DNA of 64,000 bases, taken from NCBI GenBank assembly GCA_916613615.1, contig OU744735.1, positions 45,598,468-45,662,467 of the forward strand, read 5' to 3'. The stretch's first letter is position 1; each line of letters starts with the position of its first letter. The position numbers and the translations under genes are program-made. This document shows positions 7,695-63,581 of this stretch, one piece after another. The stretch comes from Steromphala cineraria. Lineage: Eukaryota > Mollusca > Gastropoda > Trochida > Trochidae. The notes below the pieces were generated by a model. That model was not told the DNA's origin. It worked only from the letters and a program-made list of their open reading frames with translations, and ran no database searches.

Positions 7695-8554
7695 AGATTG
7701 GGGTGATAGGTCGACCCATGGTGTTCACGTCAAACATCGTAACTCTGACGACATTAGAAATATGTCCTCTGCTCAGTAAAACGTACTTAAATACGTTTTG
7801 GTTTTCGCTTTGAAATTAAATGTAGGGGTAAAGATTGCACAACATACAAACCAAAACAAAAAAAAAAACCCAAAAAACCCGGATTTCTCTTAATATTGTA
7901 GTAAGCATTGTCATATCATGTTTATGTTTATATAATTCAATGCTGAATCTGGTAGATATTGACTGTTTACTAGGCATTGCTGTTAAACGTTGTAGCTGCA
8001 TGTATTATTTTAGGCACTGCATGGTGTATGTTGATATCGTAGGCCCTACTATTATCATGTTGATATCGTATTTATCATTGTAGGTGTTGCTGTATCATTT
8101 TCATATCGTATTCATTATCAATTAACAATAGCTCGACTACCGTTTGTTGGACCTCGATGTGGGTGGAGATTTTTGAATCTGCTGGTAGGGTCATTGCTTC
8201 TGGCGTTGCCTTAATCTCAAAGGCGACTCCATGGGATTACTAGCCCATAATGTGTAGTTTTGCAGACACTGTGATAAGAAACATAACAATGCCACTTAAA
8301 CATTTTTACTGTAAATATATAATTCTCTTGACTATTTATCATTAACGTTACGAAACGAGCAATGGTACAATGATGTTATCTAAAGTACCGTAGTGCCCAT
8401 CAACAGATCTCTCCTTACATATGTTTACCTCATGCTTCATCATATAACTTATATTTTTGTTGTTGGTTGCAGACCACCATTGTTGAAGAAAACTGTCCTT
8501 GTATAGGAATCCTTGACAAGAATTCAAAGAAGTCCTGATTCAAGAAAATCACGA

Positions 8555-19197: not shown

Positions 19198-19322
19198 TCA
19201 GCAAAGTCCGCAGAAATGTCGGCAATTGTTCTTTGCCCAAGTCTTGTAGGTTTCGCACACGGATTTGTCGTACTTGACACAGTCAGAGGATACATCGGTG
19301 CATGCGGTGTCAGGAGTTGAAG
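19198..19322 (-). CDS. ADAMTS terminal exon: ShK domain 4 and stop
   Basis: Acceptor GATTCCATGTTGCAG. It encodes STPDTACTDVSSDCVKYDKS, then VCETYKTWAKNNCRHFCGLC, then TGA. A complete six-cysteine ShK domain ends the protein two residues after the fifth cysteine pair, which is typical of C-terminal ShK modules. Confidence 0.88.
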
Positions 19323-22300
19323 CTGCAACATGGAATCAATTGTACATACTTGATAATTAGAACTTTGAATATTAGGACCATTTATTTGAAATATTGATAA
19401 TAAACAAACATCCTTTTATCGTAATTGGTCTATTGTGTTTACATTGAATTTCTTGTTCACAACCAAAACGACCCGAAGATGAAAATGATGGTAGACAAAT
19501 ATTGTTATTGTTATCTATCAAACATAACATGATAATAGTGAACACAAGTAACGGTGTTATATCGTTAAGCAACCGTTTTAAAATGAGAACTATGTAGTTT
19601 GTTATTGTGGAGACGAGTACAAACGCATATCCTCAGATTCAAGCTTTTGATGTTTCTGCTTCTTACCATTCGGAGGGTGTTGTTTGGAATAAAGCAATGT
19701 GTTCTTAACTTATATGTTCTTTTTTTGTGTGATAGGGACACATATTTACAGCCGCTCCAAATCACGTTTCTATAAACCAGCTTGTGTTAATTTCAATGTT
19801 CTCTCACGTTCCTTGGATATTGTATTTAATTCATAGCGCGTTATACGGCGTGGAAATTGACTGGAAGATAATACTTTTTAAAACAGATAAGTCTACCCAT
19901 TCATCAAAGACTCTAAAAGGACATATACAAAAACAACAATATGACATCAGTCACCACTGTCAAGAGAAAAAGAACTTATTCAACACAAATATGAGTATAG
20001 AGAATAATTTAGAAACAAGATGATAGAAGCATAATTCATGAGGTTGCTACTGCTACTAGACTGTTTTAAGTTCTCTAAAAAAGTCACATGTGTTGTGTTT
20101 TTCTTTGATGACCATATTGAAGGGGAGGTAACTCCTTATATACCAGATTCTTCCACTTTCAGTGTGTATAAGCCCCCGAAGGACTTGAGTTTTTCATTTG
20201 TAGGTTTCCATTTGAAGATTTGAAATTTCGTATTTTGATTATAGCAATTTTTAAATTTGAGAACGTTTCCATGAGATATCAAATATATCTGCGTATCCTT
20301 TGATGCACAATGATACATATGAGGGATAATTGACTCTCATTTGCGGTAATCATTATCTGGTAGCTATAGGTAGGTAGGTATTATTCAGATGACTTTCGAT
20401 CAGATATGTCCTAAAATCGTCATGCAATAAAATTAATTACTTAAAGGGAGATGAGAAATGACTTAATTGTTATATAAAATCGCATATATCATTGACTGTA
20501 CCTGGTTTCTTGGTAGTGGTTATCGCCCCTTGTTCTGTACAGAAGCGACATCTACGTCTGCAGTTCTTTCTAGCCCAAAGAGCGTACTCCTTACACACCG
20601 TGTCATCATACTCCGCACAGTGTTCATTCGAATCCTTGCACGTGCTGTCTGCTTTCGTCGTGGGTGTGGTCGTTGATGTTTCGATGACGTCACAGTAGTT
20701 GCAATACTTTCTGCAGTTTCTGTTCCCCCATTCAGGATATTGTTTACAGTCCTTTTGTGTGTAAAGATGGCAGTTATCTAGCCTATTGATGCATGAACCG
20801 GAAGTCTCATCTGCAGAACCTGCATCGGTAGATGTTTGGGACGTCGTTGATTTAGATGTTTTGGCATCTTCGCTATTTTCGTTGTTGGATTGTTGGTTTG
20901 AGTTGTTATCTTTAGCATCTGTTTTAGTTACAGTTTGGTTGTTATCCCTTGACACTGAGTTAGCTGAAACCTGATTGTTATCCTTTGTTGAACTATCCCT
21001 GACTATCTCGTTGTTATCCTTTGTTGAACTATCCCTGACTATCTCGTTGTTATCCTTTGTTGAACTATCCCTGACTATCTCGTTGTTATCCTTTGTTGAA
21101 CTATCCCTGACTATCTCGTTGTTATCCTTTGTTGAACTATCCCTGACTATCTCTTTGTTATCCATTGATGAACTATCCCTGACTATCTCGTTGTTATCCT
21201 TTGTTGAACTATCCCTGACTATCTCGTTGTTATCCTTTGTTGAGCTATCCCTGACTATCTCGTTGTTATCCTTTGTTGAACTATCCCTGACTATCTCGTT
21301 GTTATCCTTTGTTGAACTATCCCTGACTATCTCGGTGTTATCCTTTGTTGAACTATCCCTGACTATCTCGTTGTTATCCTTTGTTGAACTATCCCTGACT
21401 ATCTCGTTGTTATCCTTTGTTGAACTATCCCTGACTATCTCGTTGTTATCCTTTGTTGAACTATCCCTGACTATCTCGTTGTTATCCTTTGTTGAACTAT
21501 CCCTGACTATATCGTTGTTATCCTTTGTTGAACTATCCCTGACTATCTCGTTGTTATCCATTGATGAACTATCCCTGACTATCTCGTTGTTATCCTTTGT
21601 TGAACTATCCCTGACTATCTCGTTGTTATCCTTTGTTGAACTATCCCTGACTATCTCGTTGTTATCCTTTGTTGAACTATCCCTGACTATCTCGTTGTTA
21701 TCCATTGATGAGCTATCCCTGACTATCTCGTTGTTATCCTTTGTTGAACTATCCCTGACTATCTCGTTGTTATCCTTTGTTGAGCTATCCCTGACTATCT
21801 CGTTGTTATCCTTTGTTGAACTATCCCTGACTATCTCGTTGTTATCCTTTGTTGAACTATCCCTGACTATCTCGTTGTTATCCTTTGTTGAACTATCCCT
21901 GACTATCTCGTTGTTATCCTTTGTTGAACTATCCCTGACTATCTCGTTGTTATCCTTTGTTGAACTATCCCTGACTATCTCGTTGTTATTCTGTGAGTCT
22001 ACGCTATCGCCAGTTTGTCCCTTGTCAGTGGTTATTGCGTTGTTGGAATCTGGATCACCAACTTGTTTTTCGTTACCGCTACTGTCTACATGTTCATCAT
22101 TCCGTCCAATAGTGTTACGTTCAGCGGTTTGACCCTGTTGTTCATTTGCCACAGTTTCTCCTGTTTTTGTTGTTGCCTCTCCCTGAGCCGTAGCTTCCAC
22201 TGGCACCGGAACAGGACACATCCCACAATACACCGGGCAGTGATTCCTAGCCCACTCCGTGTAACGCGTACATATCTCCTTTCTATAGGAATCACACTCT

Positions 22301-25300
22301 GCCGTCTTGTTGTCATGGCAACCGTCTCCTGCAACTGAAATGTAGCATTCCGACATTCTTTAGAATATAAGCGCTTAAACCTATGCAATATTTTGAATTC
22401 CATACTTCTTACTACAAATTACCTGCTGGTGTAGACTGAACCACGGGACACTCCCCATTGTTACACGAGCCCTGTGTGGAGGGTCTGTCCCTCTGTATAC
22501 ACACACTGTCCTCCAGTCTCGAGTCTGAAGGGCTGAAGCAACCAACCTGTCGGTGTCTGGTGCCCGGTCCACAGCTTACAGAACACTGGAAGCAATAACC
22601 GTTCGTAAATATCTTTGTTAGATAACTTTAGTTATTTGAACAAGTGTTCTGTTACTAGTTTAAAGTTATTCAACCAGTGTTGTGTAACCAAAAGAAATGA
22701 TTCAAAGATAGTGACGTCATAATGGTGCATTACTTTTGCAATCAGCTCATCAGGTGCAAACAAACCGTCTGCCGTTTCAATTTTTTTAATTCATTATATT
22801 GTTTTCCATTTTTCGTGTTTTCCCCCCAAACTTTTCTCTTACTTATCTCAACGTCTTGAACTCTTGAACATGTCGCCATTCGGGAAGTGATAAAGTGTAT
22901 CACCACTCAGCAGAGTGACGACAAAGGTTATCACCACTCAGCAGAGTGACGACAAAGGTTATCACCACTCAGCAGAGTGACGACAAAGGTTATCACCACT
23001 CAGCAGAGTGACGACAAAGGTTATCACCACTCAGCAGAGTGACGACAAAGGTTATCACCACTCAGCAGAGTGACGACAAAGGTTATCACCACTCAGTAGA
23101 GTGACGACAAAGGTTATCACCACTCAGTAGAGTGACGACAAAGGTTATCACCACTCAGCAGAGTGACGACAAAGGTTATCACCACTCAGTAGAGTGACGA
23201 CAAAGGTCATCACTACTCAGCAGTGACGACAAAGGTTATCACCACTCAGCAGAGTGACGACAAAGGTTATCACCACTCAGCAGAGTGACGACAAAGGTTA
23301 TCACCACTGTAGTCTGATTGAGGGTTTACGTCACTTATTGAACAGAGTATCTCTATCTCAATCATTATATATAAGGCTTCCTCTAGCTCGTTAAAACACC
23401 CACATCTGACCAGCGGCTAGTTGCCCACTCCCCTGGACAGTCCTGAGTTCCACACGTCTCCGTCCTGCTGGGCCTGGTGTTGAAGCCGCATTGACCGTCA
23501 CTGACCACTCGGTCCGTCTGACCGTCGCTCCGGACACACTGGACGCTTCTTGTCTTCAGTCCCCCATCACAGGTTTTGGAACAACCGGAGTAGCTGCCCA
23601 CTGTCCATCTGAAGTTATACACAGACTGTTTACTTGAAGGACAAACCTCCTCCGTGCATGGCTTGATGTAACTCACCTTGAAGGACAAACCTTCTCCGTG
23701 CATGACTTGGTGTAACTGACCTTGAAGGACAAACCGTCTCCATGCATGGCTTGATGTAACTCACCTTGAAGGACAAACCTCCTCCATGCATGGCTTGGTG
23801 TAACTCACCTTGAAGGACAGGCTTTCTCCGTGCATGGCTTGGTGTAACTCACCTTGAAGGACAAACCTCCTCCATGCATGGCTTGATGTAACTCACCTTG
23901 AAGGACAAACCTTCTCCATGCATGACATCAGCATGTGGATTCACAACAACAAGCTTAAACTTAACCAGAACAAGACTGAAGTCTGTCGGAACCAAGGCCA
24001 TGCTATCCAGAACCACAATAAACAAGCTCCAACTTGGTGAAGAAGAAATAAAGTTAGCTTCATATGTGAAGAACCTTCTAACTTATCTCCAATCAGACTT
24101 CAACTGTGACAGACAGGTGACCGATTTATGTAGCAAGTATAACTACCATTTGTATAACATCGGGAAAATCCGTCATCTTTTAACATAAAGAAGCTAGTGC
24201 TGCTGTTGTCAGAACATTCGTCTTGTCCAGATTCGATTATTGCAATAGCCTTCTTCTGAGTACAAACGACTCCAGAAGATACAAAATATAGCTGCCAGAA
24301 TAGTGACCTCTAGATCAAAGTATGATCACATATCACCTATCCTCAAGTCGTTACACTGGCTACCAGTACAGGCTATGATGAGTTTAAAGTTCCCTCCCTT
24401 GCATACCAGTGTGTAAGTGGAACAGCCCCAGAGTACTTGTGTGAACTCATCACTGAGTATAAACCCAGCCGTCCTTTTAGATCAGAATCACACAATCTTC
24501 TCCAGATACCAAAGTGGAAGCTCAAAGATTGCCAATGTTCAAACGTACTTATAATTAAGGAAATATTACCCATAGAGACATTTTCATCTTCGACATGTAC
24601 AGCGCTTTGAGCATATGCCATATAGATAAGGCGTAATATAAATACTCATCTATCATCATTTATCATGGCTTGATGCAACTCACCTTGAAGGACAGGCTTT
24701 CTCCGTGCATGACTTGGTGTAACTCACCTTGAAGGACATGCTTTCTCCGTGCATGACTTGGTGTAACTCACCTTGAAGGACATGCTTTCTCCGTGCATGA
24801 CTTGGTGTAACTCACCTTGAAGGACAGGCTTTCTCCGTGCATGACTTGGTGTAACTCACCTTGAAGGACAGGATTTCTCCGTGCATGACTTGATGTAACT
24901 CACCTTGAAGGACATGCTTTCTCAGTGCATGACTTGATGTAACTCACCTTGAAGGACAGGCTTTCTCCGTGCATGACTTGGTGTAACTCACCTTGAAGGG
25001 CAGGCTTTCTCCGTGCATGACTTGGTGTAACTCACCTTGAAGGACATGCTTTCTCCGTGCATGACTTGGTGTAACTCACCTTGAAGGACATGCTTTCTCC
25101 GTGCATGACTTGGTGTAACTCACCTTGAAGGACATGCTTTCTCCGTGCATGACTTGGTGTAACTCACCTTGAAGGACATGCCTTCTCCGTGCATGACTTG
25201 ATGTAACTCACCTTGAAGGACAGGCTTTCTCCGTGCATGACTTGGTGTAACTCACCTTGAAGGACAGGCTTTCTCCGTGCATGACTTGGTGTAACTCACC

Positions 25301-28300
25301 TTGAAGGACAGGCTTTCTCCGTGCATGACTTGGTGTAACTCACCTTGAAGGACATGCTTTCTCAGTGCATGACTTGATGTAACTCACCTTGAAGGACAGG
25401 CTTTCTCCGTGCATGACTTGATGTAACTCACCTTGAAGGACAGGCTTTCTCCGTGCATGACTTGGTGTAACTCACCTTGAAGGACAGGCTTTCTCCGTGC
25501 ATGACTTGGTGTAACTCACCTTGAAGGACATGCTTTCTCCGTGCATGACTTGGTGTAACTCACCTTGAAGGACATGCTTTCTCCGTGCATGACTTGGTGT
25601 AACTCACCTTGAAGGACATGCCTTCTCCGTGCATGACTTGATGTAACTCACCTTGAAGGACAGGCTTTCTCCGTGCATGACTTGGTGTAACTCACCTTGA
25701 AGGACAGGCTTTCTCCGTGCATGACTTGGTGTAACTCACCTTGAAGGACATGCCTTCTCCGTGCATGACTTGGTGTAACTCACCTTGAAGGACATGCCTT
25801 CTCCGTGCATGACTTGATGTAACTCACCTTGAAGGACATGCCTTCTCCGTGCATGACTTGGTGTAACTCACCTTGAAGGACAGGCTTTCTCCGTGCATGA
25901 CTTGGTGTAACTCACCTTGAAGGACAGACTTTCTCCGTGCATGACTTGGTGTAACTCACCTTGAAGGACATGCTTTCTCCGTGCATGACTTGGTGTAACT
26001 CACCTTGAAGGACAGGCTTTCTCCGTGCATGACTTGGTGTAACTCACCTTGAAGGACATGCTTTCTCCGTGCATGACTTGGTGTAACTCACCTTGAAGGA
26101 CATGCCTTCTCCGTGCATGACTTGGTGTAACTCACCTTGAAGGACAGGCTTTCTCCGTGCATGACTTGGTGTAACTCACCTTGAAGGACAGGCTTTCTCC
26201 GTGCATGACTTGGTGTAACTCACCTTGAAGGACAGGCTTTCTCCGTGCATGACTTGGTGTAACTCACCTTGAAGGACATGCTTTCTCCGTGCATGACTTG
26301 ATGTAACTCACCTTGAAGGACATGCTTTCTCCGTGCATGACTTGGTGTAACTCACCTTGAAGGACAGGCTTTCTCCGTGCATGACTTGGTGTAACTCACC
26401 TTGAAGGACATGCTTTCTCCGTGCATGACTTGGTGTAACTCACCTTGAAGGACAGGCTTTCTCCGTGCATGACTTGGTGTAACTCACCTTGAAGGACATG
26501 CTTTCTCCGTGCATGACTTGGTGTAACTCACCTTGAAGGACATGCTTTCTCCGTGCATGACTTGGTGTAACTCACCTTGAAGGACAGGCTTTCTCCGTGC
26601 ATGACTTGGTGTAACTCACCTTGAAGGACAGGCTTTCTCCGTGCATGACTTGATGTAACTCACCTTGAAGGACATGCTTTCTCAGTGCATGACTTGATGT
26701 AACTCACCTTGAAGGACAGGCTTTCTCCGTGCATGACTTGATGTAACTCACCTTGAAGGACAGGCTTTCTCCGTGCATGACTTGGTGTAACTCACCTTGA
26801 AGGACAGGCTTTCTCCGTGCATGACTTGGTGTAACTCACCTTGAAGGACATGCTTTCTCCGTGCATGACTTGGTGTAACTCACCTTGAAGGACATGCTTT
26901 CTCCGTGCATGACTTGGTGTAACTCACCTTGAAGGACAGGCTTTCTCCGTGCATGACTTGGTGTAACTCACCTTGAAGGACAGGCTTTCTCCGTGCATGA
27001 CTTGATGTAACTCACCTTGAAGGACATGCTTTCTCAGTGCATGACTTGATGTAACTCACCTTGAAGGACAGGCTTTCTCCGTGCATGACTTGATGTAACT
27101 CACCTTGAAGGACAGGCTTTCTCCGTGCATGACTTGGTGTAACTCACCTTGAAGGACAGGCTTTCTCCGTGCATGACTTGGTGTAACTCACCTTGAAGGA
27201 CATGCTTTCTCCGTGCATGACTTGGTGTAACTCACCTTGAAGGACATGCTTTCTCCGTGCATGACTTGGTGTAACTCACCTTGAAGGACATGCTTTCTCC
27301 GTGCATGACTTGGTGTAACTCACCTTGAAGGACATGCCTTCTCCGTGCATGACTTGGTGTAACTCACCTTGAAGGACAGGCTTTCTCCGTGCATGACTTG
27401 GTGTAACTCACCTTGAAGGACAGGCTTTCTCCGTGCATGACTTGGTGTAACTCACCTTGAAGGACAGGCTTTCTCCGTGCATGACTTGGTGTAACTCACC
27501 TTGAAGGACATGCCTTCTCCGTGCATGACTTGGTGTAACTCACCTTGAAGGACATGCCTTCTCCGTGCATGACTTGATGTAACTCACCTTGAAGGACATG
27601 CTTTCTCCGTGCATGACTTGATGTAACTCACCTTGAAGGACATGCTTTCTCCGTGCATGACTTGGTGTAACTCACCTTGAAGGACATGCTTTCTCCGTGC
27701 ATGACTTGATGTAACTCACCTTGAAGGACATGCTTTCTCCGTGCATGACTTGGTGTAACTCACCTTGAAGGACAGGCTTTCTCCGTGCATGACTTGATGT
27801 AACTCACCTTGAAGGACAGGCTTTCTCCGTGCATGGCTTGTCGTAACTCACCTTGAAGGACATGCTTTCTCCGTGCATGACTTGATGTAACTCACCTTGA
27901 AGGACATGCTTTCTCCGTGCATGACCTGGTGTAACTCACCTTGAAGGACATGCCTTCTCCGTGCATGACTTGGTGTAACTCACCTTGAAGGACAGGCTTT
28001 CTCCGTGCATGACTTGGTGTAACTCACCTTGAAGGACAGGCTTTCTCCGTGCATGACTTGGTGTAACTCACCTTGAAGGACAGGCTTTCTCCGTGCATGA
28101 CTTGGTGTAACTCACCTTGAAGGACATGCTTTCTCCGTGCATGACTTGGTGTAACTCACCTTGAAGGACAGGCTTTCTCCGTGCATGACTTGATGTAACT
28201 CACCTTGAAGGACATGCTTTCTCAGTGCATGACTTGATGTAACTCACCTTGAAGGACAGGCTTTCTCCGTGCATGACTTGATGTAACTCACCTTGAAGGA

Positions 28301-52300: not shown

Positions 52301-55300
52301 ATACTCACCATTCACCTCCCCCATGAAGTAACTGCCCCTCCTCACATACTCACCATTCACCTCCCCATGAAGTAACTGCCACTCCTCACATACTCACCAT
52401 TCACCTCTCCCATGAAGTAACTGCCCCTCCTCACATACTCATCATTCACCTCCCCCATGAAGTAATTGCCCCTCCTCACATACTCACCATTCACCTCCCC
52501 ATGAAGTAACTGCCACTCCTCACATACTCACCATTCACCTCCCCCATGAAGTAACTGCCCCTCCTCACATACTCATCATTCACCTCCCCCATGAAGTAAT
52601 TGCCCCTCCTCACATACTCACCATTCACCTCCCCCATGAAGTAACTGCCACTCCTCACATACTCATCATTCACCTCCCCTTTGAAGTAACTGCCCCTCCT
52701 CACAAACTCACCATTCACCTCCCCCATGAAGTAACTGCCGCTCCTCACATACTCACCATTCACCTCCCCCATGAAGTAACTGCCACTCGTCACATACTCA
52801 CCATTCACCTCCCCCATGAAGTAACTGCCACTCCTCACATACTCACCATTCACCTCCCCCATGAAGTAACTGCCCCTCTTCACATACTCATCATTCACCT
52901 CCCCTTTGAAGTAACTGCCCCTCCTCACATACTCACATTCACCTCCCCTTTGAAGTAATTGCCCCTCCTCACATACTCACCATTCACCTCCCCCATGAAG
53001 TAACTGCCACTCCTCACATACTCACCATTCACCTCCCCCATGAAGTAACTGCCCCTCCTCACATACTCATCATTCACCTCCCCTTTGAAGTAACTGCCCC
53101 TCCTCACATACTCACCATTCACCTCCCCTTAAGCTTTGAAGTAACTGCCCCTCCTCACATACTCAACATTCACCTCCCGCATGAAGTAACTGCCACTCCT
53201 CACATACTCACCAATCACCTCCCCCATGAAGTTACTGCCACTCCTCACATACTCATCATTCAACTCCCCCATGAAGTAACTTCCCTTTCTCACATACTCA
53301 CCATTCACCTCCCCTTTGAAGTAACTGCCCCTCCTCACATACTCACCATTCACCTCCCCCATGAAGTAACTGCCCCTCCTCACATACTCATCATTCACCT
53401 CCCCATGAAGTAACTGCCACTCCTCACATACTCACCATTCATCTCCCCATGAAGTAACTGCCGCTCCTCACATACTCACCATTCACCTTCCCCATGGATT
53501 AACTGCCACTCCTTACATACTCACTCTTCACCATCCCCATGAAGTAACTGCCCCTCCTCACATACGCACCATTCACCTCCCCCATGAAGTAACTGCCACT
53601 CCTCACATACTCACCATTCACCTCCCCATGAAGTAACTGCCACTCCTCACATACTCACCATTCACCTCCCCCATGAAGTAACTGCCCCTCCTCACATACT
53701 CACCATTCACCTCCCCCATGAAGTAACTGCCCCTCCTCACATACTCACCATTCACCTCCCCCATGAAGTAACTGCCCCCATCTCACATACTCACCATTCA
53801 CCTCCCCCTTGAAGTAACTGCCACTCCTCACATACTCATCATTCACCTCCCCCATGAAGTAACTGCCACTCCTCACATACTCACCATTCACCTCCCCTTT
53901 GAAGTAACTGCCCCATCTCACATACTCATCATTCACCTCCCCCATGAAGTAACTGCCACTCCTCACATACTCACCATTCACCTCCCCCTTGAAGTAACTG
54001 CCCTTCCTCTTGATGCATGTGTCGTTGTGACCTTGACACGCACCGCACACATCCGGGCGAGCTGGGGAGTCGCTTACTCCGTCACATCCGAAAGGCTTAG
54101 GGTAGAAATCAGTTTACATTACATATCAAATCTCAACATCGTATCGTATCGTATCGTATCGTATCGTATCGTTTTTTCGATCTCAAGAATCAACACAGTA
54201 TCTAAAAAATCAAATTTTTTCTTAGACAAACTGATGTCAGCCAATGTAGAGTCAGAACTTAAATCAATCTCATTAATTGCAAGTCTAACCCTGGATCACC
54301 AAAAGGAATGTGATTTTGCCACACCACCCTTTTCGAGATAAAGATGTATTATCATCTCTGCACTTCAGTAGCTTAACAGCTTGTGTTCCAGTTATACCAC
54401 CAACCCTGCACTTTTGTAGTTGTGTTCCAGTTATACCACCCACCCTGCACTTTTATATTTATGTTCCAGTTATACCACCCACCCTGCACTTTTGTAATTC
54501 TGTTCCAATTATACCACCCATCCTGCACTGTTGTATTTATGTTCCAGTTATACCACCCACCCTGCACTGTTGTATTTATGTTCCAGTTATACCACCCACC
54601 CTGCACTTTTATAATTCTGTCCCAGTTATACCACCCACCCTGCACTATTGTAATTGTGTTCCAGTTATACCACCCACCCTGCACTGTTGTAATTTTGTTC
54701 CAGTTATACCACCCACCCTGCACTCGCCCTTGACACATCTGTTGTAGACCCCTTTAGCGTCGCTGCACTGGGTCCCGTCCTGGTACAGCGTGCTGGAGCC
54801 CACCCCCCTCAGGTGTATCGTCTCCTCCCCCTCGGGGTGGCAGAAGAGCATACATACGCTCTCACCTGCAGAATATGGGATGTATGGTTGAAATAATGAT
54901 CCCTGACTGAGTGAATATCTGTGAATCATCGAGCAATCGGCGAGTTGTTTATCACAGATATTCACGAAGTCACAACCACACCACATGGTGTTAAGGGGTT
55001 AAAACTTAAAACTTGAATATTCAGTTTATACATAGATTAATGATCGCATCTATAATATACGGGGTGAATGGGGGTTGCAACACAAAACTTGCATATTGAC
55101 TTATTGACTTAAAGATCGCGCCTGTAATATACGGGTTGTATCGGTTTTGTACATTTGGTTGATAGAGAGATAAAATTGTAAAGCTCGCATCAGTAGCATA
55201 AGGGTCACACTTAAATCTTTAATATTTGAAGGGAATGCAAGATATCGACTTTGACTTTTGAACATAAGAGCACAATCCAGTGAGAAACTGATGTTCAGTG

Positions 55301-58300: not shown

Positions 58301-61300
58301 TTGTGATTTGTAAGTATCTAAGTTAATCTTTCACTCGCAGATCAAAATGAGTGAAGTATATGAACACAAGATATGTTACCCAAGCAAACAAATGCGTCAA
58401 AGCGTCATTCCCATTGCAAGCAATACCTTTTACAATTTGTCCATACGTTCACAAGATGAATTCAGTAGGGACAACACTTTACTCCTCGCCCACTTGAAGA
58501 CTACAAGCTATGCTCTGTACTATTGGTCTGTCAACTCACAAGATGAAGTGCAGGAGTGACTCCCTGCTACACCGGGACCACTGGAAGGCTACAAGCTATG
58601 CTCTTTACTATGGGACTGTAAACTCACAAGATGAAGTGCAGGAGTGACTCCTTGCTACACCGGGACCACTGGAAGGTTACAAGCTATGCTCTTTACTACT
58701 GGTTTGTAAACTCACAAGATGAAGTGCAGGAGTGACTCCCTGCTACACCGGGACCACTGGAAGGCTACAAGCTATGCTCTTTACTATGGGACTGTAAACT
58801 CACAAGATGAAGTGCAGGAGTGACTCCCTGCTACACCGGGACCACTGGAAGGCTACAAGCTATGCTCTTTACTACTGGTCTGTAAACTCACAAGATGAAG
58901 TGCAGGAGTGACTCCCTGCTACACAGGGACCACTGGAAGGCTACAAGCTATGCTCTGTACTACTGGTCTGTCAACTCACAAGATGAAGTGCAGGAGGGAC
59001 TCCTTGCTACACCGGGACCACTGGAAGGTTACAAGCTATGCTCTGTACTACTGGTTTGTAAACTCACAAGATGAAGTGCAGGAGGGACTCCCTGCTACAC
59101 CGGGACCATTGGAAGGCTTCAAGCTATGCTCTGTACTACTGGTCTGTAAACTCACAAGATGAAGTGCAGGAGGGACTCCTTGCTACACCGGGACCACTGG
59201 AAGGCTACAAGCTATGCTCTGTACTACTGGTTTGTAAACTCACAAGATGAAGTGCAGGAGTGACTCCCTGCTACACCGGGACAACTAGAAGGTTACAAGC
59301 TATGCTCTTTACTACTGGTCTGTAAACTCACAAGATGAAGTGCAGGAGTGACTCCCTGCTACACCGGGACCACTGGAAGGTTACAAGCTATGCTCTTTAC
59401 TACTGGTTTGTAAACTCACAAGATGAAGTGCAGGAGGGACTCCCTGCTACACCGGGACCATTGGAAGGCTTCAAGCTATGCTCTGTACTACTGGTCTGTA
59501 AACTCACAAGATGAAGTGCAGGAGGGACTCCTTGCTACACCGGGACCACTGGAAGGCTACAAGCTATGCTCTGTACTACTGGTTTGTAAACTCACAAGAT
59601 GAAGTGCAGGAGTGACTCCCTGCTACACCGGGACAACTAGAAGGTTACAAGCTATGCTCTTTACTACTGGTCTGTAAACTCACAAGATGAAGTGCAGGAG
59701 TGACTCCCTGCTACACCGGGACCACTGGAAGGTTACAAGCTATGCTCTTTACTACTGGTTTGTAAACTCACAAGATGAAGTGCAGGAGGGACTCCTTGCT
59801 ACACCGGGACCACTAGAAGGTTACAAGCTATGCTCTTTACTATTGGACTGTAAACTCACAAGATGAAGTGCAGGAGTGACTCCCTGCTACACCGGGACCA
59901 CTGGAAGGCTACAAGCTATGCTCTGTACTACTGGTTTGTAAACTCACAAGATGAAGTGCAGGAGGGACTCCCTGCTACACCGGGACCACTGAAAGGCTAC
60001 AAGCTATGCTCTTTACTACTGGTCTGTAAACTCACAAGATGAAGTGCAGGAGGGACTCCCTGCTACACCGGGACCACTGGAAGACTACAAGCTATGCTGT
60101 TTACTACTGGTCTGTAAACTCACAAGATGAAGTGCAGGAGGGACTCCCTGCTACACCGGGACCACTAGAAGACTACAAGCTATGCTCTGTACTATCGGTC
60201 TGTTAACTCACAAGATGAAGTGCAGGAGGGACTCCCTGCTACACCGGGACCACTAGAAGACTACAAGCTATGCTCTGTACTATCGGTCTGTTAACTCACA
60301 AGATGAAGTGCAGGAGGGACTCCCTGCTACACCGGGACCACTAGAAGACTACAAGCTATGCTCTGTACTACTGGTCTGTCAACTCACAAGATGAAGTGCA
60401 GGAGGGACTCCCTGCTACACCGGGACCACTGGAAGACTTCAAGCTATGCTGTTTACTATCGGTCTGTAAACTCACAAGATGAAGTGCAGGAGGGACTCCC
60501 TGCTACACCGGGACCACTGAAAGGCTACAAGCTATGCTCTTTACTACTGGTCTGTAAACTCACAAGATGAAGTGCAGGAGTGACTCCCTGCTACACCGGG
60601 ACCACTGAAAGGCTACAAGCTATGCTCTTTACTACTGGTCTGTAAACTCACAAGATGAAGTGCAGGAGGGACTCCCTGCTACACCGGGACCATTGGAAGT
60701 CTACAAGCTATGCTGTTTACTACTGGTCTGTAAACTCACAAGATGAAGTGCAGGAGTGACTCCCTGCTACACCGGGACCATTGGAAGTCTACAAGCTATG
60801 CTGTTTACTACTGGTCTGTAAACTCACAAGATGAAGTGCAGGAGTGACTCCCTGCTACACCGGGACCATTGGAAGACTACAAGCTATGCTCTGTACTACA
60901 GGTCTGTAAACTCACAAGATGAAGTGCAGGAGTGACTCCCTGCTACACCGGGACCACTGGAAGGCTACAAGTTATATTGTTTACTACTGGTCTGTCAACT
61001 CACAAGATGAAGTGCAGGAGGGACTCTCGCTACACCGGGACCACTGGAAGGCTACAATTTATATTGTTTACTACTGGTCTGTCAACTCACAAGATGAAGT
61101 ACAGGAGGGACTCTCGCTACACCGGGACCACTGGAAGGCTACAAGTTATACTGTTTACTACTGGTCTGTCAACTCACAAGATGAAGTGCAGGAGTGACTC
61201 CCTGCTACACCGGGAACACTGGAAGGCTACAAGTTATGCTCTTTACTACTGGACTGTAAACTCACAAGATGAAGTGCAGGAGGGACTCCCTGCTACACCG

Positions 61301-63581
61301 GGACCACTGGAAGGCTACAAGTTATATTGTTTACTACTGGTCTGTAAACTCAAAGGATGAAGTGCAGGAGCGACTCCCTGCTACACCGGGACCACTGGAA
61401 GGCTACAAGTTATACTGTTTACTACTGGTCTGTCAACTCACAAGATGAAGTGCAGGAGTGACTCCCTGCTACACCGGGACCACTGGAAGGCTACAAGTTA
61501 TACTGTTTACTACTGGTCTGTCAACTCACAAGATGAAGTGCAGGAGGGACTCCCTGCTACACCGGGACCACTGGAAGGCTACAAGTTATACTGTTTACTA
61601 CTGGTCTGTCAACTCACAAGATGAAGTGCAGGAGTGACTCCCTGCTACACCGGGACCACTGGAAGGCTACAAGTTATACTGTTTACTACTGGTCTGTCAA
61701 CTCACAAGATGAAGTGCAGGAGGGACTCCCTGCTACACCGGGACCACTGGAAGGCTACAAGTTATACTGTTTACTACTGGTCTGTCAACTCACAAGATGA
61801 AGTGCAGGAGGGACTCCCTGCTACACCGGGACCACTGGAAGACTACAAGTTATATTGTTTACTACTGGTCTGTAAACTCACAAGATGAAGTGCAGGAGGG
61901 ACTCCCTACTACACCGGGACCACTGGAAGGCTGTGCCACCCCCGGCTCCACCAGTAGACATGATGTTCTTCTTGTCGTCACAAATGTTGCCATCACTGTC
62001 GTGGTCCATGTTCAAACTAGGGAACAGTAGGAGAAGAGAGCGAGAACAAATTTAGATGAGATTGGTCACTTTGTGCGATCAGAGCGTAAACAGAGTGAGA
62101 ACAGTCAGTGCGATTTGTGAACTGAGATACTAAAATTTAATGAAGAAGAAGGTATAAACATACGCTCCTTTATCTATCCGTGCATTTTATGGGAGTTTGA
62201 ATTTTGAATGTAGTTTGCGGGTTCTTCCCTTTATAGTTTGAAATGAATTGTATACTTAATAATCAAATCATTACCGGTAAAAATTCCGACGATTATTTTT
62301 CATTGGGTTAATTTGTCGAGAGAAACATGAAATATATTTGTTGCAGTACTGTTGCTGAAAAATGGTGTTAAACTGTGCTAACGATATATGTAAATTATTT
62401 ATTATTTGAAATGAATCTTACATCATTACAAGATTGCGGGAACCGATAGCGTGCAATTGTCCTTTCGTATATTCTAAGAGTTCTAACTATCGCATATTTT
62501 AAAATATAAGTGAGTTTGCGTCATCGGCTTACATAAGAAGTATGGATTACCTGAACTAATTGATACATCAAGCAGTGACATATATGTGATACAATATCAT
62601 TAAAGGAAACACGCACCTGTGCCCCGTCTCGTGAGCGAGAGTCAGTCCGATGTCCAGCCCGTTATCCTCCAGGACCGAGCATCTCTGTTTGCTGACACAC
62701 ATCCCCCCTAGAGACGCCAGACCGGTCGTGTCCTTTACACCCTTGTGAACCAGGTCCGTCCTGGGGGAATGGAGTAGTTTACGAACGACATTACTTTGGA
62801 TATTTTTCAAATATGTCTCTTGAAGAAGGTATTGCAAAATTATCTTATTATAGACTGGTGATACCTATTTGATAGACCCGAGGAAAACAGTAATGAACGA
62901 GGCTCGAGGACGGACGCAGGATCAAGTTAATGACATTTTCTGTCGACTGTCACGTGACGGCTTCTTGACCGATGTTCTTCTTTTAGAACTCAAATCAAAT
63001 CATTCAAATCAGAATGGAATCAACGGCCTTCACAGGCAGTTCAGCATCTTGACCAGAAAAATGTTTGAGTCAAGCACTGATACTTACTGGGCTAACATCA
63101 AATGCTGACTTACATTGCTTCTTTTTTTTTGGTCCTTTCAGTAATCAGCCTGACTTCATCACATTCTACTGAACAAACATTGCTTTTACAGTACAACGCT
63201 TTCGACATCAACATTTGACTGGTTTACAAGAGTTATTTAGTCTTGACTGATCGACGGGTGTCATTGACTTGTCAGGATTACGATTACAAATATTTCTTCT
63301 GCCACCTTATACCGTTGATATGCTTTAAAATGATACTTTCCTGCAACATTTCGACGCTATAAGTAAAGTTTGCCATATATGACCCCAAACAACTCACGGA
63401 GTGGCTCTTTAAGAAGACACATGTAAATCAAGCAATATGAACTCAAAATAAAGCACCTGGTCATCAGACTAGCTGCGTCCACATGTTGGGGGTGTTGGTC
63501 ACTCGGGGGGTTAAACTTCTCCTGCCATTCACAGAAACTGGTCAGGGTCAGATCAGCGTCCGGTATGATCTCCAGTCCAGC
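19198..63581 (-). CDS. ADAMTS-type secreted metalloprotease with C-terminal ShK domains, 18 exons, 5' end outside the window
   Basis: A zinc metalloprotease of the extracellular matrix, transcribed on - and cut by the right window edge, so signal peptide, prodomain and the first part of the catalytic domain are missing here. All 18 exons have GT-AG ends and compatible phases. Domain order: catalytic core with zinc motif HETGH-S-LNMDHD and Met-turn NIMST, disintegrin-like, TSP1, cysteine-rich, spacer, three more TSP1, ShK 1, a 36-bp-repeat linker, ShK 2-4, stop. The ADAMTS core order is canonical; a C-terminal block of four ShK domains is not found in vertebrate ADAMTS proteins. Four introns are occupied by minisatellites built from the adjoining exon end and its donor. 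Catalytic residues appear intact, so an active protease is likely; the substrate is unknown. Confidence 0.85.
19323..20501 (-). other. Last ADAMTS intron
   Basis: About 1.2 kb with no recognisable element except the short motif GGGGAGGTAACTCC near 20125. Related motifs lie at about 19166 (AGGGAGGTAACCCTC, in the 3' UTR) and 10527 (GGGGAGATAACTCC). Confidence 0.5.
20502..22328 (-). CDS. ADAMTS exon: ShK domains 1-3 with a 28-copy repeat linker
   Basis: Acceptor TTTCAGTTGCAG, donor AAACCAG|GTACAG; 608 codons in one exon. ShK 1 begins GCHDNKTAECDSYRKEIC and ends NHCPVYCGMC. A Ser/Thr/Asp/Asn-rich segment without cysteines follows, then ShK 2 (SCINRLDNCHLYTQKDC to CRKYCNYC) and ShK 3 (TCKDSNEHCAEYDDTVC to CRRRCRFC). 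Each has the six-cysteine ShK spacing; such domains occur in many animal secreted enzymes as accessory modules. The linker is encoded by a 36-bp tandem array. The long antisense frame at 20975-22132 is a shadow of that array. Confidence 0.88.
20970..21985 (-). repeat. Coding 36-bp minisatellite, 12-residue repeat, about 28 copies
   Basis: Each unit encodes NNEIVRDSSTKD, with occasional SSSMD, NNDIV, NTEIV or NKEIV variants. All units keep 36 bp, so the frame is never lost, in contrast to the non-coding 45-bp array nearby. The segment is acidic/polar and rich in Ser/Thr, so it probably forms a disordered, perhaps O-glycosylated spacer between ShK 1 and ShK 2. Copy number is likely polymorphic. 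Confidence 0.95.
22423..22585 (-). CDS. ADAMTS exon: fourth TSP1
   Basis: Acceptor TATTGCTTCCAG, donor CAGCAG|GTAATT. It encodes CSVSCGPGTRHRQVGCFSPS, then DSVCIQRDRPSTQGSCNNGE, then CPVVQSTPA. Complete cysteine set of a TSP1 repeat. Ends in phase 1. Confidence 0.87.
22888..23309. repeat. 31-bp minisatellite with internal palindrome, about 13 copies
   Basis: The unit contains GGTTATCACCACTCAGCAGA then GTGACGACAAA. CACTC-AGCA-GAGTG is a small hairpin in every unit. It lies in the intron after the third TSP1 exon but starts about 95 bp away from it and shares no sequence with it, unlike the four donor-derived arrays. Confidence 0.93.
23404..23632 (-). CDS. ADAMTS exon: third TSP1 and start of fourth
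   Basis: Acceptor TTTGTCCTTCAAG, donor TCAGAT|GTGGGT. It encodes SKQSVYNFRWTVGSYSGCSK, then TCDGGLKTRSVQCVRSDGQ, then CGTQDCPGEWATSRWSD. The W-x-x-x-x-x-x-x-CSKTCDGG pattern and three more cysteine positions define a TSP1 repeat; WATSRWSD opens the next. The acceptor lies inside the last unit of the 44-bp array. Phase 2 in, phase 0 out. Confidence 0.85.
23925..24662 (+). mobile_element. Non-LTR retrotransposon 3' fragment, longest of three
   Basis: On + there are broken frames matching the end of a CR1/L2-like LINE reverse-transcriptase protein: CDRQVTDLCSKYNYHLYNIG, KIRHLL, then in another frame DYCN, LHWLPV and CVSGTAPEYLCELI. It ends in a 3' tail GGCGTAATATAAATACTCAT. Frameshifts and stops make it inactive. 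It is antisense to the host gene and embedded in the 44-bp array. Confidence 0.8.
29680..30066 (+). mobile_element. Internally deleted LINE fragment, copy a
   Basis: It shares the left boundary (ACATCAGCATGTGGATGCAC) and tail of the longer fragment but lacks the middle. It encodes KLKLQQNKTEVMLIGTKAML on one side; on the other, TCPSLESFKANVKTYLFRKY in a different frame. An apparently identical copy lies 1221 bp downstream. Confidence 0.8.
30901..31287 (+). mobile_element. Internally deleted LINE fragment, copy b
   Basis: I found no base difference from the copy at 29680-30066, and it lies at exactly 1221 bp offset, together with the same neighbouring 44-bp units. It arose by tandem duplication of a mixed block, not by a new insertion. 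Confidence 0.8.
31306..31435 (-). CDS. ADAMTS exon: end of second TSP1
   Basis: Acceptor TATGTGTAAG, donor TTCAAG|GTGAGT. It encodes SLRVGATCVQISTSQRVDRT, then LCDTASEPRSYTKSCTEK, then SCPS, completing the six cysteines of the repeat. The final 44 bp, from GAGTTACACC to CCTTCAAG, are the seed of the 44-bp array that makes up the next intron. Confidence 0.82.
31436..32371 (-). other. ADAMTS intron, unique sequence
   Basis: No repeat or element recognised in about 0.9 kb. Confidence 0.5.
32372..32552 (-). CDS. ADAMTS exon: spacer end and start of second TSP1
   Basis: Acceptor GATTCTATTCCAG, donor TCAAG|GTTGGT. It encodes VYRVYGDAYEDVTPIIYYEY, a linker, then YKWMTIDGQCSVTCGQG. The CSVTCGQG motif opens a TSP1 repeat, with a single Trp before it. 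The donor GTTGGT is weaker than others in the gene, but phase 1 fits the next exon. Confidence 0.82.
33293..33450 (-). CDS. ADAMTS exon: spacer domain, main part
   Basis: Acceptor CCTCCCCCCGACAAG, donor GCGCAG|GTTAGA. It encodes IKVNGKRLFNTNGRQKNRKD, then YKQDGVTVLYAP, then ESIQIEGPIPVEIEAQ. The NGKxLFN, G-V-x-V-x-Y and E-x-I-x-IxGPIxVxIxxQ patterns match the beta-rich spacer of ADAMTS. Phase 1 in, phase 0 out. Confidence 0.85.
33696..33773 (-). CDS. ADAMTS exon: spacer domain, short exon
   Basis: Acceptor TGATTATTTACAG, donor GGATGA|GTATGT. 78 nt encode EYITFLTLPKGSTGIKMTND, then NRYTWM. The first codon is completed by the G of the previous exon. The LPKGSTGIKM segment matches the (I/L)PxGAxxIxI motif that opens the ADAMTS spacer. 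The exon is too short to stand out on its own; phase and motif support it. Confidence 0.75.
34158..54009 (-). repeat. 45-bp minisatellite, about 440 copies, made from exon end plus 5' splice site
   Basis: Read on -, each unit is AGGAGTGGCAGTTACTTCAT or AGGAGGGGCAGTTACTTCAA, then GGGGGAGGTGAATG, then GTGAGTATGTG. The first 34 bp copy the end of the spacer exon; the last 11 bp are intron start. In frame it would read GEYVRSGSYFMGEVN. It fills nearly all of a 20.2-kb intron. Large blocks recur at fixed offsets (1796, 3288, 2251 and 2701 bp), showing higher-order duplication. 44-bp units and recurrent stop-bearing variants (CAGTTAATCC; GCTTAAGGGG) break the frame, so the array as a whole is not coding. 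Each unit has 20 G and 3 C on the transcribed-sense strand. Confidence 0.97.
53975..54095 (-). CDS. ADAMTS exon: end of cysteine-rich domain, start of spacer
   Basis: Acceptor TTTCTACCCTAAG, donor GAATG|GTGAGT. It encodes PFGCDGVSDSPARPDVCGAC, then QGHNDTCIKRKGSYFKGEVN. GCDG and CGxCxGxNxTC are strongly diagnostic of ADAMTS. Its last 34 bp and its donor are the seed of the 20-kb 45-bp array. The first donor is chosen because it gives the shortest product and the right phase, but five downstream units are also in frame. Confidence 0.88.
54138..54172. repeat. (ATCGT)n pentanucleotide microsatellite
   Basis: Seven perfect ATCGT units in the intron between the cysteine-rich exons; no role seen. 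Confidence 0.9.
54384..54722 (-). repeat. 39-bp minisatellite made from exon end plus 5' splice site, about 9 copies
   Basis: Read on -, the unit is AGTGCAGG (the exon's last 8 bp), then GTGGGTGGTATAACTGGAAC, then an A/T-rich 11 bp. The first unit is the true exon-intron boundary at 54717/54716. The period is 13 codons, and the second and third donors are still in frame with the exon before a TAG appears. Confidence 0.92.
54717..54865 (-). CDS. ADAMTS exon: cysteine-rich domain, second part
   Basis: Acceptor CATATTCTGCAG, donor TGCAGG|GTGGGT. It encodes ESVCMLFCHPEGEETIHLRG, then DGTQCSDAKGVYNRCVKGEC with a final Arg. DGTxC and C-V-x-G-x-C are family hallmarks. Its last bases and donor seed the 39-bp array at 54384-54722. 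Confidence 0.88.
55316..55421 (-). CDS. ADAMTS exon: cysteine-rich domain, first part
   Basis: Acceptor CTCTCAACAG, donor CATAG|GTGAGG. It encodes PCSTSQEKYKEEQCAATDRY, then PLHGFYKHWLPGDTI. The (F/Y)-x-x-EQC motif marks the start of the ADAMTS cysteine-rich region. Ends in phase 1. Confidence 0.85.
55879..55942 (-). CDS. ADAMTS exon: end of first TSP1 repeat
   Basis: Acceptor ACATTTTCAG, donor TTTGAG|GTAAAC. It encodes PLFGGKKCEGFATKAVMCNF, supplying the last cysteines of the TSP1 repeat. Phase 2 in, phase 0 out. Confidence 0.85.
56237..56388 (-). CDS. ADAMTS exon: first TSP1 repeat
   Basis: Acceptor TTTCTCTTTAG, donor CCGAG|GTAATT. It encodes WCISGQCQDIGPDGPPAVDG, then GWSAWDNSQSECSRSCGGGV, then RVRSRKCDNP. 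WSAW and CSRSCGGG are the tryptophan and disulfide signatures of a thrombospondin type 1 repeat placed, as usual, right after the disintegrin-like domain. Confidence 0.9.
56720..56821 (-). CDS. ADAMTS exon: end of disintegrin-like domain
   Basis: Acceptor GCTTCTTCCAG, donor CGGAAG|GTAGCA. 34 codons encode DECGKLVCFDPNLPGQC, then APRMDGTECGNRK, matching the C-x-x-LxC ... DGTxCG-x-xK pattern. Phase 0 on both sides. Confidence 0.85.
56822..58026 (-). other. ADAMTS intron, no other feature seen
   Basis: About 1.2 kb without repeats or recognisable elements; several chance open frames on +. Confidence 0.5.
58027..58192 (-). CDS. ADAMTS exon: start of disintegrin-like domain
   Basis: Acceptor TTTTTACCCCAATAG, donor GGTGGG|GTAGGC. 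Joined to the catalytic exon it reads HFIFDGKTGCLSDHP, followed by LPRDMPGVLYPGDDQCRLF and GEGSRIC. The LPG-x-x-Y-x-x-D-x-QC pattern is typical of the ADAMTS disintegrin-like domain. A second GT two codons upstream is out of phase with the next exon and was not chosen. Confidence 0.85.
58440..61930 (-). repeat. 88-bp minisatellite made from exon end plus 5' splice site, about 39 copies
   Basis: Read on -, each unit carries CCTTCCAGTGGTCCCGGTGT, then AGCAGGGAGTCACTCCTGCA, then CTTCATCTT, then GTGAGTTTACAGACCAG, then an AT-rich 22 bp ending TAG. The first 49 bp copy the last 49 bp of the catalytic-domain exon, in which this is the first unit, and GTGAGT is its donor. The array runs from the exon's end through nearly the whole intron; the left-most copies (58440-58560) are degraded. 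88 is not a multiple of three, so using a downstream donor would shift frame. Confidence 0.95.
61882..62016 (-). CDS. ADAMTS exon: third zinc ligand, Met-turn and end of catalytic domain
   Basis: Acceptor GTTCCCTAG, donor ATCTT|GTGAGT. It encodes LNMDHDSDGNICDDKKNIMS, then a Gly-rich turn, then FQWSRCSRESLLHFI. Joined to the previous exon the zinc motif reads HExxHxxNxxHD; Asn in place of the usual Gly also occurs in some vertebrate ADAMTS. WSxCSRE is the conserved end of the catalytic domain. The exon's last 49 bp and donor are the seed of the 88-bp array that follows. Confidence 0.9.
62017..62616 (-). other. ADAMTS intron, unique sequence
   Basis: Phase-2 intron that splits the zinc-binding motif between exons. 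No repeat seen. Confidence 0.5.
62617..62760 (-). CDS. ADAMTS exon: catalytic domain with HETGH
   Basis: Acceptor TTCCCCCAG, donor CACAG|GTGCGT. It encodes TDLVHKGVKDTTGLASLGGM, then C, then a stretch ending GLTLAHETGH. The GLA-x-GGMC and SVLEDNG-like signatures match ADAMTS proteases. HETGH supplies two zinc-binding histidines and the catalytic glutamate. The intron splits the zinc motif after the second His. Confidence 0.9.
62761..63456 (-). other. ADAMTS intron, unique sequence
   Basis: About 0.7 kb; nothing recognised beyond chance open frames on +. Confidence 0.5.
63457..63581 (-). CDS. ADAMTS exon: catalytic domain, first part visible
   Basis: Acceptor TTTATTCCAG, donor ACCAG|GTGCTT. 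It encodes AGLEIIPDADLTLTSFCEWQ, then a stretch ending DAASLMTR. The FCxWQ and DxAxLxTR patterns are diagnostic of the region before the zinc site in ADAMTS catalytic domains. Ends in phase 2. Upstream exons lie beyond the window. Confidence 0.85.

What the first reader, a model, noticed from the sequence alone, without database searches (positions are those of the whole stretch)
19198..63581. Four different minisatellites in one gene, each seeded by an exon's 3' end and its 5' splice site
In the ADAMTS gene the introns after exons 61882-62016, 54717-54865, 53975-54095 and 31306-31435 carry tandem arrays with periods 88, 39, 45 and 44 bp. The unit sequences are unrelated to each other. Yet each consists of the end of its own upstream exon (49, 8, 34 and 44 bp) and the donor, and each array begins exactly at that exon. 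None is anchored at an acceptor of a pre-existing unique intron. This points to a repeated process that amplifies donor sites, or to donors that tolerate or favour amplification, perhaps because the first copy keeps splicing correct. I know of no described class of 'donor-seeded' minisatellites.
Basis: partly seen in the sequence, partly recalled or inferred. Interest (0 to 1): 0.95.

Follow-up and report, generated by a model that had tools for sequence, protein, structure and literature searches.

The report
Minisatellites grown from exon splice donors
In a gastropod protease gene, four introns begin with repeat arrays made from copies of the preceding exon's end and its splice site; this kind of repeat is already known from amphioxus and from two human genes, but having several, some very long, in one gene is unusual.

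Summary
In an ADAMTS-type gene with an open frame (minus strand, 18 exons in the window), four introns start with arrays of period 88, 39, 45 and 44 bp (about 39, 9, 441 and 139 copies). Each unit copies its own exon's 3' end plus the 5' splice site. The first donors give one frame to the stop. An adjacent paralog has introns at the same four exon ends without these arrays, so they are later expansions in older introns. Junction sequence recurs in its own intron at 7 of 41 donors and 2 of 41 acceptors of the two genes, against 1 and 0 of 1640 mismatched pairs.

The interpretation needs three corrections. The class is described: amphioxus 'mirages', human ABCA7 and CBS VNTRs. Acceptor-spanning duplications exist in the paralog; the donor-acceptor difference is not significant (p 0.15; five or more copies, 5 against 0, p 0.055). 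A genome-wide scan for tandem donor motifs shows no clear excess over one reversed-motif control (2906 against 4480 matches; 9 against 5 arrays in the first 55 Mb of one contig). Most likely these are tandem duplications across a donor, tolerated because the upstream donor keeps splicing correct, then expanded by minisatellite turnover.

The parts
19198..63581 (-). ADAMTS-type gene, 18 exons in the window; its 5' exons lie beyond 64000
   Evidence: One ORF of 1378 codons to the stop; Pfam Reprolysin, ADAMTS_CR_2, ADAMTS_CR_3, ADAMTS_spacer1, TSP1_ADAMTS in the first 787 residues given; closest proteins include mollusc ADAMTS; upstream exons by tblastn
61882..62016 (-). seed exon of the 88-bp array (donor CTT|GTGAGT)
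58490..61932 (-). 88-bp array, 39 copies; unit = about 49 bp exon end + 39 bp intron start; a decayed older unit lies at its distal end (within 58395-58500)
54717..54865 (-). seed exon of the 39-bp array (donor AGG|GTGGGT)
54384..54724 (-). 39-bp array, 8.7 copies; unit = 8 bp exon end + 31 bp intron start
53975..54095 (-). seed exon of the 45-bp array (donor ATG|GTGAGT)
34158..54009 (-). 45-bp array, about 441 copies, 19.9 kb, with higher-order repeats (best lags 73, 183 and 60 units)
   Evidence: not a coding extension
33696..33773 (-). 78-bp spacer-domain exon between the 45-bp array and the next exon, missed in the finding
   Evidence: tblastn, frame and splice sites, spacer1 profile matched 2-115 of 115
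31306..31435 (-). seed exon of the 44-bp array (donor AAG|GTGAGT)
23633..31305 (-). 44-bp array (unit = 42 bp exon end + GT), 139 donor-spanning BLAST copies, interrupted by three inserts (30907-31286, 29686-30065, 23925-24663); two of them identical over 394 aligned bases that include flanking array bases
22898..23308 (-). 31-bp mid-intron array, not donor-seeded (contrast case)
20975..21989 (-). 36-bp array inside a coding exon, in frame (contrast case)

Best explanation
These are intronic minisatellites of the exon-boundary ('mirage') kind. In each case a short tandem duplication took in the end of an exon and its 5' splice site, leaving exon-donor followed by a second exon-end-donor. The upstream donor still defines the exon, so everything after it is intron, the protein is unchanged, and the repeat is free to grow by slippage, unequal exchange and block duplication. 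Shown by sequence: the units are copies of the exon end plus donor; the first donors give one open ADAMTS reading frame; the introns are older than the arrays; the arrays arose independently. Inferred: that the first donor is the one used in the cell; that tolerance, rather than a donor-directed mutational process, accounts for the number at donors; and that short microhomology (for example GAGT in exon and donor of the 44-bp case) started them.
For: Junction sequence recurs in its own intron at 7 of 41 donors and 2 of 41 acceptors of the two neighbouring ADAMTS genes, against 1 of 1640 and 0 of 1640 mismatched pairs (Fisher 2e-11 for donors, and 6e-4 for acceptors). A first pass with stricter placing found 6 donors. 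First donors give one ORF of 1378 codons with a complete spacer match. The same four exon ends are followed by introns in the adjacent paralog without donor-spanning arrays, except for one relic copy at the first; the paralog has copies at two other donors: a decayed array, 27 bp x5.5, and about two or three copies at exon 194634-194790. Two of four periods (88, 44) are not multiples of three and read-through meets stops about 1, 23, 76 and 1 codons after the exon, whereas the array inside an exon is 36 bp and in frame. Decoy donors are not purged: GT intact in 38/39, 7/8, 349/440 and 131/131 units. In the 88-bp array identity to the exon-adjacent unit falls from 0.953 to 0.893 across fifths and its distal end is a decayed unit (score 64, best of 500 shuffles 36). 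Human ABCA7 is the working case: canonical splicing at the first GT of a 25-bp VNTR of about 12 to 427 copies, with some single-unit retention (PMC5954066 passages).
Against: No RNA data, so use of the first donor is inferred from the reading frame. Four donor arrays in one gene is more than random placement predicts (1.2e-4, post hoc), which tolerance alone does not explain. The expected gradient away from the exon is weak or absent elsewhere: identity to the first unit is flat in the 45- and 44-bp arrays; mismatches to the exon do not rise significantly with distance in the 88-bp (rho 0.24, p 0.13) or 45-bp array (rho 0.07, p 0.14) and fall in the 44-bp array (rho -0.19, p 0.03). 0 of 7 TSP1-type exons elsewhere in the genome had a boundary-spanning copy in the adjoining flank of about 700 bp.
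Confidence: 0.75

Rival explanations
1. A mutational process favours donors: 5' splice sites with the intron-side consensus (GTRRGT), or something bound to them during transcription, promote tandem duplication.
For: All 4 arrayed donors of the window gene are GTGAGT/GTGGGT, against 1 of the 13 others in the window (hypergeometric p 0.002). Five or more copies: 5 of 41 donors against 0 of 41 acceptors (p 0.055). In the first 55 Mb of contig C1, 9 arrays carry the tandem donor motif against 5 with the reversed motif (p 0.21).
Against: Total tandem-motif matches genome-wide are fewer than for the reversed control (2906 against 4480). In the paralog, 3 of the 4 corresponding donors are also GTRAGT and carry no array, and its own copied donors are GTAGAA and GTCAGT. 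Acceptor-spanning copies exist. Concerted evolution could have made the first donors match the array. 0 of 7 exons elsewhere.
Confidence: 0.15
2. Splice-direction filter: boundary duplications arise at both ends of introns, but only donor ones can grow long, because the first donor transcribed is the right one while the first acceptor transcribed is the wrong one.
For: Acceptor-side copies are few (three copies of a ~136-bp unit; two copies about 95 bp apart) while donor arrays reach about 441 copies.
Against: Any-copy counts (7/41 against 2/41) do not differ significantly (p 0.15) and the five-or-more class is borderline (p 0.055). Amphioxus BflGb6 carries an acceptor-side array of 3 and 6 units (PMC3087553 passages). 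In human CBS 844ins68, a duplicated intron 7/exon 8 junction, splicing strongly favours the more distal copy and the combination is nonpathogenic (PMC2630376 passages), which is the opposite of the order assumed here.
Confidence: 0.3
3. The arrays are coding expansions or regulated alternative exons (repeat peptides added when downstream donors are used).
For: The 45-bp and 39-bp periods are multiples of three, and the 45-bp unit reads in frame from its exon for about five units.
Against: The 45-bp array has 533 stops in the exon's frame and 51 of 440 unit spacings differ from 45 bp; the 88- and 44-bp arrays stop after about one codon.
Confidence: 0.04
4. Copy numbers are assembly artefacts.
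For: Long internal exact repeats (29 units at lag 40 in the 45-bp array; 394 identical aligned bases at two inserts) are hard to assemble.
Against: The contig is 57.8 Mb, and many distinct unit variants (84 distinct among 440) are not what simple mis-assembly would give; the exon-anchored first units do not depend on copy number. No reads were available.
Confidence: 0.06

Closest known systems
Amphioxus 'mirages' (Adh3, globins BflGb6 and BflGb9, TnC, PGBD5)
   Same: Minisatellite-like tandem copies of exon-intron boundaries, many carrying splice signals, reported not to interfere with regular splicing (PMC3087553 and PMC3902484, passages read; the original Adh paper is not held).
   Different: Reported units 10-72 bp (Adh3) and about 150-160 bp (globins), 3 and 6 units in the two BflGb6 haplotypes, and both boundaries hit. 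Here a mollusc, up to about 441 copies, four donors of one gene.
Human ABCA7 intron 18 VNTR
   Same: Array flush with an exon; its first GT is that exon's donor; about 12 to 427 copies, a range that nearly reaches the 45-bp array's (PMC5954066 passages).
   Different: 25-bp unit whose first two bases are the donor; one array described in that gene in the passages read; effects on splicing measured there, not here.
Human CBS 31-bp VNTR
   Same: Named c.1444_1467+7(16_21), which I read as 24 exon bases plus 7 intron bases, a donor-spanning unit (PMC2630376 passages).
   Different: 16-21 copies.
Intron gain by tandem duplication
   Same: Duplication of exon sequence that carries a splice signal.
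   Different: Makes a new intron; here the introns are older than the arrays. PMC4974935 seen in search listing only.

Membership tests
Exon-boundary minisatellites ('mirages') | Repeat unit spans an exon-intron boundary | tested here: met
Exon-boundary minisatellites ('mirages') | Minisatellite-size tandem units | tested here: met
   88, 39, 45, 44 bp
Exon-boundary minisatellites ('mirages') | Regular splicing not disturbed | not testable with these tools
   No RNA; the open frame through the first donors is compatible
Exon-boundary minisatellites ('mirages') | Length polymorphism and somatic instability | not testable with these tools
   One assembly only; block duplications inside arrays suggest turnover
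ABCA7-type donor VNTR | First GT of the array is the canonical donor of the flanking exon | tested here: met
   for the 44-bp array one unit, then an insert, then the array
ABCA7-type donor VNTR | Some transcripts retain single units through the next donor | not testable with these tools
   No RNA; decoy donors mostly intact
Intron gain by tandem duplication | Intron absent before the duplication | tested here: not met
   Introns at the same exon ends in the paralog
Coding tandem-repeat expansion | Open in-frame array | tested here: not met

The most novel reading that the evidence does not exclude
In this gastropod lineage 5' splice sites are recurrent birthplaces of minisatellites through a mutational process tied to donors, so that a measurable share of long introns consists of amplified copies of their own donor and exon end.
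Probability: 0.12. Interest if true: 0.75.

Novelty: new member of a known kind. Interest (0 to 1): 0.45.

Why it matters
It takes exon-boundary minisatellites, known to me from chordates, into a mollusc, with several independent cases in one gene and more in its neighbour, up to 20 kb long. Hundreds of intact decoy donors behind a used one would make a natural test of how the spliceosome picks the first of many equal 5' splice sites. The donor-acceptor balance of such arrays could separate a mutational bias from a splicing-order filter.

Tried and rejected
Coding extension of the 45-bp array: rejected (533 stops in frame). Apparent loss of part of the spacer domain (26-residue gap to homologs): resolved by the missed exon 33696-33773. 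Intron birth by duplication: rejected by the paralog. Selection on decoy donors: donor 9-mers are slightly more conserved than other positions (0.994 v 0.949, 0.986 v 0.929, 0.960 v 0.954, 1.000 v 0.968 for the 88-, 39-, 45- and 44-bp arrays), but only 35 of 88, 8 of 39, 5 of 45 and 18 of 44 dinucleotides are less well kept than the GT, so no case stands out and none is purged. A strand-asymmetry cause common to all: strong skew lies over the 45-bp array, not over the 44- and 88-bp arrays.

Two 34-bp arrays in the flanks carry donor-like motifs (177393-178231, 107353-108211), but I recognised no exon by eye in three-frame translations of their flanks; no family scan was run on them. In the 262-kb region 4 of 55 arrays hold GGTRAGT against a mean of 0.67 for 269 shuffled motifs, 3 of which reach 4; three of the four rows are the window gene's own arrays (two of them the same 44-bp array), so this is not independent. 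A second control motif for the genome-wide scan did not complete. No ADAMTS match in the next 30 kb.

Full report
WHAT IS THERE. The window lies in a 57.8-Mb contig of a 1.27-Gb genome. The two best-scoring mollusc matches to its protein are ADAMTS proteins of Gigantopelta, 57% identity over 71% of the query, and Haliotis, 71% over 35%. The gene at 19198-63581 reads on the minus strand through 18 exons with one frame to the stop and has Reprolysin, cysteine-rich, spacer and thrombospondin domains. I missed it too at first; it showed as a gap against homologs and was found with tblastn.

THE ARRAYS. Shifting each exon end by one period shows identity that begins in the exon and runs across the donor for the 88-, 39- and 45-bp arrays; the insert spoils that test for the 44-bp array. 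The exon share is about 49, 8, about 34 (28 with one mismatch) and 42 bases. The 44-bp unit is 42 exon bases plus GT: exon and donor share GAGT there, so the next unit's exon copy supplies the rest of the donor. The exon junctions recur 38, 8, 440 and 139 times in their introns. The 44-bp array is interrupted by three inserts, two of them identical over 394 aligned bases; they resemble a LINE reverse-transcriptase tail by eye (recalled), but my hand-made reading matched no Pfam family. The gene's other two clear arrays are a mid-intron 31-bp array and a 36-bp array in a coding exon that stays in frame.

MORE THAN CHANCE? With six arrays placed at random on the collapsed gene, four or more spanning donors has probability 1.2e-4; the gene was picked for the pattern, so this overstates the case. 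A better control compares junction sequences of two neighbouring ADAMTS genes (24 and 21 exons, 43 introns; the two shortest, 88 and 64 bp, dropped) with all 41 introns. A first pass gave 6 of 41 donors and 2 of 41 acceptors in the own intron. A rerun with that end mended and with the same looser rule for donors and acceptors gives 7 of 41 donors and 2 of 41 acceptors, against 1 of 1640 and 0 of 1640 mismatched pairs, the one being that paralogous match. Other exon ends outside the window are still approximate, so degenerate cases may be missed.

INDEPENDENT AND RECENT. The paralog at 179154-196047 (coordinates extended from the window) has introns at the same four exon ends, no donor-spanning array at them, one relic donor copy at the first of them, a decayed 27-bp donor array at another exon and the copies at its second exon. 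It also has two acceptor-spanning duplications: three copies of a unit of about 136 bp and two copies about 95 bp apart. So both boundaries can be duplicated. Five or more copies are seen at 5 of 41 donors and 0 of 41 acceptors (p 0.055); any copy at 7 and 2 (p 0.15). Neither is significant.

SPLICING. Decoy donors are mostly intact and mostly equal to the first in predicted U1 pairing. Read-through from the exons stops after about 1, 23, 76 and 1 codons, and the 45-bp array has 533 stops in the exon's frame. The simplest reading is that the first donor is used and the rest is intron. In human ABCA7 this arrangement splices canonically, with some retention of one unit, and expanded alleles raise an exon-19-skipped isoform (PMC5954066, passages). 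A first-come rule would also predict that acceptor arrays are less tolerated. This is inference, and CBS 844ins68, where the more distal of two copies is favoured, speaks against a simple form of it (PMC2630376, passages).

GENOME-WIDE. Three AGGTRAGT motifs at 28-58 bp spacing occur 2906 times in the genome; the same motif reversed occurs 4480 times (repeated in 121; control listing). Matches are dominated by large arrays, and each listing shows only the first hundred or so places. Over the first 55 Mb of contig C1 I count 9 distinct donor-motif arrays against 5 control arrays (merged by eye; p 0.21). Extrapolated, that is about 208 against 115 arrays. This does not show that donors are favoured and does not exclude a modest excess. 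Only one control motif was obtained. Seven TSP1-type exons elsewhere showed no donor- or acceptor-spanning copies; one had two weak matches on the wrong side of the exon, and one had a 51-bp array in its upstream flank that does not span a boundary. Letters were limited, so 7 of 27 planned places were read. Of three arbitrary 10-kb stretches of the same contig, one held no arrays, one a few small ones, one only a 4-bp repeat.

DONOR STRENGTH. All four arrayed donors are GTGAGT or GTGGGT, against 1 of 13 others in the window (p 0.002). Against a causal role: 3 of the 4 paralog counterparts are GTRAGT without arrays, and the paralog's own copied donors are GTAGAA and GTCAGT.

KNOWN KIND. PMC3087553 (passages) describes tandem repeats spanning exon-intron boundaries in amphioxus, termed mirages, at both boundaries, without interference with regular splicing. 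PMC3902484 (passage) adds TnC and PGBD5. CBS has a 31-bp VNTR named c.1444_1467+7 (PMC2630376, passages). The original mirage paper could not be opened. No report in a mollusc turned up: named molluscs (one unrelated paper, and none); searches did not. All cover open-licence papers only.

VERDICT. Real, controlled locally, and remarkable in number and size, but a new member of a described kind. The strong claim, a process that seeks donors, remains open and is not favoured by the genome-wide count.

Noticed in passing
Window coordinates extended to 179154-196047 (G000:C42 about 45777621-45794514): A second ADAMTS gene in tandem, with a decayed 27-bp donor-seeded array (184332-184482), donor-spanning copies after exon 194634-194790, one relic donor copy near 188130, and two acceptor-spanning duplications (at exons 185771-185923 and 179154-179303).
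   Followed up: partly
20975-21989: In-frame 36-bp coding array of 28 copies (DNNEIVRDSSTK) in a linker before C-terminal cysteine-rich repeats (ShKT-like by eye, recalled).
   Followed up: no
20-397, 3203-3475, 3869-3989 and the flank to -10870: Related 42-bp arrays dispersed at several places, alternating with a 52-bp family (1758-2119, -12498 to -11928 and others).
   Followed up: no
177393-178231 and 107353-108211 (extended coordinates): 34-bp arrays of about 25 copies whose unit carries a donor-like motif, without a recognisable exon beside them.
   Followed up: partly
8507-10087: Cytochrome P450 open reading frame without introns on the plus strand (Pfam PF00067).
   Followed up: no
34158-54009: Strong strand asymmetry (GC skew about -0.73 on the plus strand over 36001-52000), so the transcript of this intron is very G-rich.
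   Followed up: no
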